A stretch of 64,000 nucleotides of DNA from the NCBI GenBank assembly GCA_011389815.1, contig JAABTP010000002.1, positions 1 to 64,000 of the forward strand. Reading direction: 5' to 3'. The notes beneath the pieces are model-generated. The model was given only the letters and a program-made list of their open reading frames with translations, was not told the DNA's origin and searched no databases. The position numbers and the translations under genes are program-made. Shown piece after piece: positions 1 through 62,644 of the stretch. This stretch comes from Desulfobulbaceae bacterium. GTDB lineage: Bacteria; Desulfobacterota; Desulfobulbia; Desulfobulbales; Desulfobulbaceae. How positions within the stretch are numbered: the stretch's first letter is position 1; the number at the start of each line of letters is the position of its first letter.

Positions 1-582
1 CGGAATAACTTCTTTCTGTGAAGGGTGGACAATAGCTGCACCTACAGCCTGCATGTAGTAGGTAACTTTGCCTGTTTTTTTATTAACCTTCTTCATACAC
101 GCCTCGGAATGAAGCTTATCGGAAGAAAAATACCCGGTACCGTCCAAATTGAGCAGGTAGGCCCCTTGCATGAAAACCATTTGTTCAAGAACCTTACCAC
201 GTTGAAGAGTTCTGAAAGCATCTTTAAATAACGATCTGAGGGCATCGGGAACAAAATCGTCCAGAATGGCACGGATAGAGGTGTCGCAAGGGATACTCTT
301 CATGCCGTAAATACTCATCAAGTTATGCGGAGATTGAAGCCTGCGCTCATCAAAGGATAACAATGAAGGATCCTTGAGAGAAAACATCGCAAATCCGGCC
401 ATGAGAGTGTCTTGCAAGGTGTGTTGTACCTTGCCGGGCCTATGATCTTTAATTTTCCCAAACCCTTCATATACTGTTGAAAACAGAGCATCGGCATTCA
501 GTTGCTTGCGCAGTTTAATTCTTTTTTTACGGTTAACTTCTTTCTCTTTGGCTCTAGCCATAGACTTGATCAGGTTTGCCAT
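1..582 (-). CDS. DDE transposase, N-terminal part (cut by window edge)
   Basis: An open frame runs from an ATG at 582 off the left edge, giving 194 codons with no stop. The N-terminus is very basic, as expected of a DNA-binding region. The middle part contains NLDGTGYFSS, which resembles the first catalytic Asp region of DDE transposases of the IS4/ISNCY type. A good AGGAG-like ribosome site (GAGGAG) lies just before the ATG. The catalytic Glu and C-terminus lie outside the window, so family and integrity cannot be decided. It follows the nucleotidyltransferase gene on the same strand. Confidence 0.75.
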   Translation of the reverse strand, partial: MANLIKSMARAKEKEVNRKKRIKLRKQLNADALFSTVYEGFGKIKDHRPGKVQHTLQDTLMAGFAMFSLKDPSLLSFDERRLQSPHNLMSIYGMKSIPCDTSIRAILDDFVPDALRSLFKDAFRTLQRGKVLEQMVFMQGAYLLNLDGTGYFSSDKLHSEACMKKVNKKTGKVTYYMQAVGAAIVHPSQKEVIP

Positions 583-611
583 AATCTCCTCTTTGCATTT
601 TTTTTGCAGAG

Positions 612-641
612 AGTATTGACCCAAAACGTTTGATATGTCAA
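612..641 (-). promoter_or_regulatory. Candidate promoter of the transposase
   Basis: On the minus strand TTGACA (641-636) and AATACT (617-612) are 18 bases apart, 30 bases upstream of the transposase start. The -35 box overlaps a GTTTGA/TCAAAC inverted repeat. The -10 box is only a 4/6 match, so this is tentative. Confidence 0.3.
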
Positions 642-685
642 ACACGAATAAAAAATGTTTACGAAAATATTTTTGTTCAACTATG

Positions 686-952
686 CTATTTCAGCATTTG
701 AGAGGGGTTCGGGAATTGCTGATTGCGGATCAAATCGACGGGTTTCTTAAAGAGTTCTTCGAGTTCCTCCTTGATATGAACCAGTGTATAGAGGTCTGGA
801 TAGGTTGTTTCGATAATTACGTCGATGTCGCTTTTGTCCGTTGCTTTTCCGGTGGAGTAAGATCCGAATATTCCTATGTTGTTGATGCCGTATTTTTTTG
901 AGTTTTCTTTTTTGTAGTTCGCTAGGATTTCAAGTATTTTTAAATGGTTCAT
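686..952 (-). CDS. MNT-type minimal nucleotidyltransferase
   Basis: This 88-residue protein has the polymerase-beta-like nucleotidyltransferase signature GSYSTGKATDKSDIDVI, with the G-S pair and both metal-binding Asp residues. In related MNT-HEPN modules the enzyme acts as antitoxin by adding nucleotides or AMP to a HEPN RNase toxin. The ending NPSQMLK is about ten residues shorter than usual for the family, whose members end with a conserved basic/Tyr tail. No HEPN gene is next to it: downstream lies a transposase gene and upstream an ATPase-nuclease gene. It may be an orphan whose partner was lost to the insertion. That loss is inference. Confidence 0.8.
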   Translation of the reverse strand: MNHLKILEILANYKKENSKKYGINNIGIFGSYSTGKATDKSDIDVIIETTYPDLYTLVHIKEELEELFKKPVDLIRNQQFPNPSQMLK

Positions 953-61036: not shown

Positions 61037-62025
61037 ATGAAAAAAGTTGCCTCATTGAAGTATGGCGTGGTGTTTAAGAAGGCCTTCTGTGACCCGGAAA
61101 TCTTTATGGCATTTGTTCAGGATATGCAGCGATTCCCGGTTTGAATGAACTTAACAAGCTGAAATAATGAAAACAAGACTGGAAAAAGTTTACGAAAGAC
61201 ATTTCTGTCATACTGATTTTAAGAAATTAGCCGTTTTCGATCTTTTCTTACGAGATCAGTATTTTGCAAAAAGCTTTCGCAATCTATTTTTTACCGTTTT
61301 TAACCATTACAAGATGTTAAGGTGTTTTGGGTCGGGAATAGCTGCAGGATATGCTGGGCTTGGCTATCACGATTGAGCATGTCGAAACCGAGAAAGAATT
61401 TGATCCGCCCATAGGATATGTCAAACCCCGCTTTGATCTCTTTGCGGAAGATATAAGCCATCGTGTCATCGTTGATATTCAACATGCCCGTACCACAGAT
61501 CATTATGATCGGTTTCTCTATTATCATTGCGTGGCCCTTCTTGAACAGATTTCCAGCTCTGCGAATTATCGCCCGGATTTGAAGGTGTTTACCGTAGTGG
61601 TGCTCACATCAGGTGATCGGCACCGTACGCCTATATCTGTAACAGATTTTGACCCTCACGACCTTGTTGGTCGGCCTTTGGGGGAAATTCCTCATAAAAT
61701 TATTTATCTTTGTCCTAAATATGTGTCCAAGGACACCCCGCAGCCGTATCGGGAGTGGTTAGAGGCAATCAATGATACATTGGATGAAGAGGTTGATGAA
61801 TCCATGTATCATCGTGCTGAAATTCAGAAGCTGTTCGCGACTATTCAGAGTGACCATATTTCCCCGGAAGAGCGGGCTCGGATGATTGAAGAGTATCACC
61901 AGGAGGAGTTGCAGGAGGTTGCGGTTGAGGAGGGAAAGCGAACTATTGCCTTTGCCCTGTTGCAGCAGGGGGTAGCTGTTGAGGTTATTGCTAAGGCTAC
62001 TGGGTTGTCGGTTGGGGGAGCTTGA
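61037..62025 (+). pseudogene. Rpn-like PD-(D/E)XK nuclease gene interrupted by a MITE
   Basis: The first 30 codons (MKKVASLKYGVVFKKAFCDP) start at 61037 after AAGGTG. The rest resumes at 61345 with QDMLGLAITIEHVETEKEF. It contains FDLFAEDISHRVIVDIQHAR, the core of the PDDEXK_2 / Rpn-type transposase-like nucleases, and an acidic coiled tail. Between them lies a 218-bp element plus one copy of a 9-bp direct repeat. Removing 227 bases joins the halves in one frame of 253 codons. The gene is therefore broken by a recent insertion. An ATG at 61351 could still give a shortened protein lacking the first ~32 residues. Confidence 0.85.
61127..61344. mobile_element. 218-bp MITE with terminal inverted repeats and 9-bp target duplication
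   Basis: The ends read CAGCGATTCCCG (61127-61138) and, inverted, CAGCTATTCCCG (61344-61333), with one mismatch. CAGGATATG flanks both sides (61118-61126 and 61345-61353). The inside has a short open frame from 61167 (MKTRLEKVYERHFCHTDFKK) that may be a remnant of the parent transposase. Without a transposase of its own it must be moved in trans. Confidence 0.85.
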
Positions 62026-62141: not shown

Positions 62142-62644
62142 CATGCAATACCGACGTGCAAGAGTACAAGGAGGAACCTATTTTTTCACAGTCGTTACCC
62201 ATGAGCGCCAACAAGATACTGACTGCTGATGAAAATATCGAAATATTGCGGGCCGGATTTCAATATGTGATGCAGAATCATCCCTTCGGCATAGATGCTC
62301 ATGTCATCCTGCCGGACCATCTTCATTTTATTTGGACATTACCAGATGGAGATCGCGATTTTTCAACGAGGTGGCGCTTGATTAAGAGCTACTTCACCCG
62401 GAATTTTGATGCGGGATATTCACCATGGCAAAAGAAGTTTTGGGAGCATCTTATTCGAGATGAAAGGGATCTGATGAATCATGTTGAGTATATTCATTAT
62501 AACCCGGTTAAGCATGGCTTGGTTCAATCACCTGTTGACTGGCCTTTTTCGAGTATTCATCGTTACATCCTTGATGGATTGTATGGCCCGAATTGGGGCA
62601 GGTCGGAACCGGTGTTGTTGGATGACAGGCTTGGAAGTGAATAA
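62142..62644 (+). pseudogene. REP-associated tyrosine transposase (RAYT), frameshifted
   Basis: The natural start is the ATG at 62142, MQYRRARVQGGTYFFTVVTH, the usual RAYT opening. After ERQQ the frame breaks near 62211-62217 by a one-base change and stops at 62226. The other frame continues ILTADENIEILRAGF through DAHVILPDHLHFIWTLPDGD to HVEYIHYNPVKHGLV. The His-x-His-like metal motif HLHF and the catalytic Tyr region are intact. RAYTs are single-strand transposases of the IS200-like (Y1) type that move REP hairpins. REPs flank this gene in inverted orientation. Unless the frameshift is a sequencing error or is bypassed, this copy is inactive. Confidence 0.85.

What the first reader, a model, noticed from the sequence alone, without database searches (positions are those of the whole stretch)
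61118..61353. MITE insertion whose removal restores the host gene
A 218-bp element with 12-bp inverted ends and a perfect 9-bp target duplication splits an Rpn-like nuclease gene. Excising the element and one repeat gives a single 253-codon frame. This pins the boundaries precisely and shows the insertion is recent. Its parent transposase is not in the window.
Basis: seen in the sequence. Interest (0 to 1): 0.6.

Follow-up and report, generated by a model that had tools for sequence, protein, structure and literature searches.

The report
Small transposon splitting a nuclease gene
A 218-base piece of mobile DNA that carries no gene of its own has recently landed in a nuclease-like gene of a bacterium; it is one of several copies of a small jumping-element family that probably borrows its enzyme from a larger relative, an ordinary kind of event with an unusually well-conserved element design.

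Summary
Confirmed. Window 61127-61344 is a 218-bp gene-free element with imperfect terminal repeats (CAGCGATTCCCG/CAGCTATTCCCG, 11 of 12 match) and a perfect 9-bp target duplication (CAGGATATG). Joining the flanks gives one 253-codon Rpn/PD-(D/E)XK-like frame. The same genome holds five intact copies (0-1 differences), each with a different perfect 9-bp duplication, and a sixth split copy. A homologue (85% protein identity) has the target once, uninterrupted. So it is a young MITE insertion. This is the likeliest enzyme source in trans, but not the strict parent, because its subterminal sequence differs. Beyond the claim, the element belongs to an older family of near-constant size (214-218 bp), also in a congeneric species and in Desulforhopalus vacuolatus. 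Both ends repeat over ~95 bp, with a TTACGAAA-like box at 62-64 and a [TC]GAT box near 87, in 10 of 10 ends. The related insertion sequences carry the reverse complement at 55-58, at their 5' end only. Known kind, new family; modest interest.

The parts
61037..61126 (+). 5' part of the interrupted Rpn/PD-(D/E)XK-like gene (30 codons, ending in the left TSD copy)
   Evidence: joined protein matches PF12784 over residues 13-209, E 1.8e-7
61118..61126 (+). left target-site duplication CAGGATATG
61127..61344 (+). 218-bp MITE, no transposase
   Evidence: 5 intact copies in the genome with 0-1 differences
61127..61138 (+). left terminal inverted repeat CAGCGATTCCCG
61142..61144 (+). premature stop (TGA) brought in by the element
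61190..61197 (+). left conserved box TTACGAAA, position 64 from the end
61214..61217 (+). left second box TGAT, position 88
61255..61258 (-). right second box TGAT, position 87
61275..61282 (-). right conserved box TTGCGAAA, position 63 from the end
61333..61344 (-). right terminal inverted repeat CAGCTATTCCCG
61345..61353 (+). right target-site duplication CAGGATATG
61354..62025 (+). 3' part of the interrupted Rpn-like gene, including stop
1..721 (-). 5' end and N-terminal transposase part of a related insertion sequence (end CAGCAATTCCCG, 9-bp TSD ATTGCGGAT shared with contig C12)

Best explanation
The feature is a non-autonomous miniature transposon (MITE) that inserted recently into an Rpn-like nuclease gene by a 9-bp staggered cut, and inactivated or truncated it. 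It carries no transposase. It was most likely moved in trans by the transposase of a multi-copy insertion sequence of the same genome, whose ends begin with the same CAGCNATTCCCG and which also makes 9-bp duplications. Shown: boundaries, TSDs, copies, host frame, presence of that insertion sequence. Inferred: trans-mobilisation by it, and loss of the gene product's function.
For: Perfect TSD and 253-codon joined frame. Five intact copies with 0-1 differences, each with its own perfect 9-bp TSD, and a sixth copy split across contig ends with TSD ATATCCCTT. Uninterrupted homologue in G005 with a single CAGGATATG, 87% DNA identity over 327 gapless bases. A second copy's site (C12) is uninterrupted in G002 and G005, 77% over 282 gapless bases. 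Own-genome insertion sequence with CAGCAATTCCCG ends and TSD ATTGCGGAT. All 8 loci of CAGC-type relatives in which both ends were found have 9-bp TSDs. Desulforhopalus vacuolatus holds both a complete 1,757-bp insertion sequence (456 aa, TSD TTGTTCTGT) and 216-217-bp MITEs with 9-bp TSDs.
Against: Inside the terminal 12-13 bp the MITE is not convincingly like the insertion sequence's ends: a profile of the insertion-sequence ends did not recognise the MITE ends above shuffles; pairwise sums were weak (own 5' end 12 of 300 shuffles as good, the nine other 5' ends 5 to 150 of 300). The conserved subterminal box is inverted relative to the insertion sequence. No strict parent was found. The own insertion sequence is only partly assembled. 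Transposition was not observed.
Confidence: 0.8

Rival explanations
1. The MITE is moved by an autonomous parent not seen here, with ~95-bp ends like its own, and the window's insertion sequence only resembles it at the tips.
For: Subterminal sequence and box orientation differ from the known insertion sequence; the MITE-end pattern was found in 3 of 257 genomes of the order, in copies without a transposase of their own where traced.
Against: No such parent turned up in 8 genomes of the genus with a model of the MITE ends nor in D. vacuolatus. The one MITE end next to a transposase-like frame proved to be another insertion sequence nested in a MITE: its other matches start near position 86.
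Confidence: 0.2
2. The element is moved by the REP-associated tyrosine (RAYT) transposase whose gene lies just downstream (62143-62644).
For: Its position; NF047646 match E 8.8e-45.
Against: Perfect 9-bp TSDs and CAG/CTG ends fit a DDE-type element (recalled knowledge: HUH enzymes leave no TSD); the RAYT frame is broken by a frameshift.
Confidence: 0.02
3. The 218 bp is a structured RNA gene or a domesticated regulatory insert that gives the shortened downstream frame (224 aa, ATG at 61351) a new start.
For: Folds better than shuffles, z -3.1; the ATG lies in the right TSD copy.
Against: Folding follows from the inverted repeats; the covariation term is unfavourable (+3.64; 8 of 63 pairs change on both sides); no Rfam match reaches its gathering score; the one promoter-like site is as many as chance gives.
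Confidence: 0.04

Closest known systems
MITEs of bacteria (IS-derived non-autonomous elements)
   Same: Size 50-500 bp, terminal inverted repeats, target duplications, no transposase, several copies (definition as in PMC10969869, passages seen)
   Different: Near-constant length (214-218 bp) between two bacterial families at 52-55% identity, and ~95-bp degenerate inverted ends with two fixed boxes
Insertion sequences with CAGCNATTCCCG ends and a ~456-aa transposase (one distant relative annotated 'ISNCY family')
   Same: First 12 bp of the ends and 9-bp TSD
   Different: 1.75-1.9 kb with a transposase; box TTTCGTAA at 55-58 of the 5' end only, in the opposite orientation
IS4 family, subgroup IS4Sa (Table 1 of PMC2266710, passage seen)
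   Same: CA ends, TSD 8-10 bp, similar size
   Different: No Pfam or NCBIfam transposase model matched above cut-off; Y of the YREK motif not seen by eye
Rpn / PDDEXK_2 genes (the interrupted host gene)
   Same: Host gene matches PF12784 above its cut-off
   Different: Nothing unusual; other Rpn-like genes remain in the genome

Membership tests
MITE | Short (50-500 bp), no transposase | tested here: met
   218 bp; the longest listed frame that starts inside is 69 codons and runs out into the flank
MITE | Terminal inverted repeats | tested here: met
   11 of 12 terminal positions; degenerate repeat to ~95 bp
MITE | Target-site duplication | tested here: met
   5 of 5 intact copies and the split copy have a perfect, different 9-bp TSD
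MITE | Several dispersed copies | tested here: met
   5 intact + 1 split copy
MITE | Mobilised in trans by an autonomous element with the same ends | tested here: inconclusive
   Same 12-bp end pattern and TSD length in an insertion sequence of the same genome; subterminal regions not alike; no experiment
ISNCY-type / unclassified insertion sequence (the candidate mobiliser) | Match to a named, curated family | tested here: inconclusive
   1 of 13 plasmid records with a relative carries the name ISNCY, at 30% identity; no Pfam, NCBIfam or PHROGs model above cut-off
IS4 family | YREK motif and 8-13-bp TSD | tested here: inconclusive
   TSD 9 bp; in the 456-aa protein R-x3-E is present but no Y at the expected place by eye; not aligned formally
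REP/RAYT element | No target duplication | tested here: not met
   Perfect 9-bp TSDs; the feature itself is recalled knowledge

The most novel reading that the evidence does not exclude
The element is not a simple deletion product of a living insertion sequence but an old, self-standing MITE lineage under constraint for length and for two transposase-binding boxes per end (near 63 and 87). It has doubled and inverted the box that its host transposons carry at one end only, which may make it a better substrate than the transposon itself. It has persisted in at least two families of the order.
Probability: 0.3. Interest if true: 0.5.

Novelty: new member of a known kind. Interest (0 to 1): 0.3.

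Why it matters
It fixes the ends, target duplication and likely enzyme source of an apparently undescribed MITE family and gives a clear case of gene interruption. If the box arrangement is functional, the family offers a compact substrate for asking how a non-autonomous element competes with its own transposon.

Tried and rejected
Looked for the strict parent: end pattern in the own genome, MITE-length pattern in 8 genomes of the genus, sequence-only model of MITE ends in the same 8 and in D. vacuolatus and Ca. Desulfobulbus rimicarensis, box pattern in 257 genomes of the order. None gave an autonomous element with MITE-like ends. A MITE end beside a transposase-like frame in D. vacuolatus contig C100 looked like the parent but is another insertion sequence nested in a MITE. 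C75/C181, at first a possible parent, is read as a MITE copy split by another element whose end also interrupts an insertion-sequence copy in C34; that element's family was not tested.

Rejected: RAYT as mobiliser, RNA gene, promoter role (see rivals). The test that insertion-sequence ends recognise MITE ends failed and is counted against the link. In one search the divergent left end of the 385-bp element was left out of the MITE-end set (5 of 6 ends used). Search of plasmid records with the MITE DNA: no match; of phage records with the transposase: no match. Literature: searches listed no paper on this element; PMC10926707, PMC10969869, PMC2266710 and PMC10132070 were seen as passages only, the others as search listings.

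Full report
Window 61127-61344 is a 218-bp insert flanked by CAGGATATG on both sides. Its ends agree in 11 of the first 12 bases. The frame opened at 61037 stops after five codons of the insert; without the insert and one duplication it runs for 253 codons and matches PDDEXK_2 (PF12784, E 1.8e-7, above its cut-off). The own genome has 9 stretches that match this protein at E <= 1e-10, two of them the halves of this gene, so Rpn-like genes are redundant there.

It is one of a family. The own genome holds 5 intact copies (contigs C157, C102, C168, C182, C12) with 0-1 differences over 218 bp; each has a different perfect 9-bp duplication. A sixth copy is split over contig ends C75 and C181, sharing duplication ATATCCCTT. 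After joining flanks, 4 of these 6 sites lie in frames with a Pfam match: Rpn-like, methyltransferase (C102), LRR-Roc (C182) and a CopG-type protein (C12); C168 gives a 161-codon frame without a match, and C75/C181 no long frame. A second gene-free element of 385 bp with 9-bp duplication ATAACGCTA lies in C222.

Empty sites: in G005 (same genus) the best Rpn homologue (85% protein identity) carries the target once and uninterrupted, in a gapless 327-base alignment at 87%. Its neighbouring genes differ, so it is a homologous gene rather than a proven same locus. The C12 site is uninterrupted in G002 and G005 (77% of 282 bases, gapless). No second genome of the same species appeared in these searches.

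The transposase source. The own genome has 40 hits of CAGCNATTCCCG against 1 for the reversed control. Many are contig ends inside a multi-copy insertion sequence. One 5' end with the N-terminal transposase part is at window 1-721, and the opposite end on contig C12 shares the 9-bp duplication ATTGCGGAT. A C-terminal part is on C162. Complete relatives exist in Desulforhopalus vacuolatus DSM 9700 (1,757 bp, 456 aa) and other genomes. In one search I scanned 42 loci: 8 CAGC-type loci gave both ends and a 9-bp duplication (8 of 8); 9 distinct loci of a more distant type gave 9 bp (5 loci) or 10 bp (4 loci); one locus repeated an earlier one, 2 gave a spurious self-match, 22 gave nothing. One plasmid-borne relative out of 13 is annotated ISNCY; no family model fits above cut-off, and no solved structure matches.

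The link between MITE and insertion sequence rests on the terminal 12 bases and the duplication length. Inside, they differ: all 10 insertion-sequence 5' ends tested carry TTTCGTAA (or a one-base variant) at 55-58, none of 8 3' ends does, and the 5 MITE ends tested carry the reverse complement (or a near variant) at 62-64. A profile of insertion-sequence ends did not pick the MITE ends above shuffles. A model of MITE ends did list the own insertion-sequence 5' end at 9 places, E 0.001-0.002, while its 3' ends were not listed at E <= 0.1; part of that score is the terminal repeat. I therefore hold trans-mobilisation likely but not shown.

An older family. A 217-bp copy with duplication ATACTCTTT is in G004, same genus (67% identical in the five-element alignment), and a decayed copy in G002. 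The box pattern occurs in 3 of 257 genomes of the order; the third, G151, belongs to another family and gives the same coordinates and scores as the genome that holds the named D. vacuolatus DSM 9700 locus. There, copies of 217 and 216 bp have perfect 9-bp duplications, and a 214-bp copy has a decayed one. A model built without D. vacuolatus sequences finds its copies at up to 54.5 bits, against about 21 bits for the insertion-sequence end. Over 5 elements, all 10 ends carry a TTACGAAA-like box at 62-64 (6 exact, 4 with one or two changes) and a [TC]GAT box near 87. Identity between own and D. vacuolatus copies is only 52-55%, so length and boxes outlast the rest. The near-palindrome is not evidence for RNA: the covariation term is unfavourable and no Rfam match reaches its gathering score.

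Verdict: an ordinary kind of event, correctly read by the first stage, in a MITE family that was not found described in the searches made (open-licence papers only).

Noticed in passing
window 1-721 (-): Partial insertion sequence at the contig end with the same CAGC.ATTCCCG end and 9-bp duplication length as the MITE; its partner end is on contig C12, so C12 and C157 are probably neighbours.
   Followed up: yes
window 62143-62644 (+): REP-associated tyrosine transposase (NF047646) whose frame is broken after 28 codons: probably a pseudogene.
   Followed up: partly
L061 (G000 C222:7734-8118): 385-bp gene-free element with related ends and 9-bp duplication ATAACGCTA; one end shares the 95-bp MITE pattern, the other has diverged.
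   Followed up: partly
L021/L065 (C34) and L007/L066 (C181): An element starting GTAACCGTTCA interrupts both an insertion-sequence copy and a MITE copy at contig ends; IS66-like by recall, family not tested.
   Followed up: no
L202, L205-L218 (D. vacuolatus): Multi-copy insertion sequence (protein start MTTIPKVLTERIDDF) nested in a MITE copy at C100; no Pfam match for the 38-aa piece.
   Followed up: partly
L075, L082, L085 (G000 C190:62409-64858): Three full-length Rpn-like genes in tandem in the own genome.
   Followed up: no
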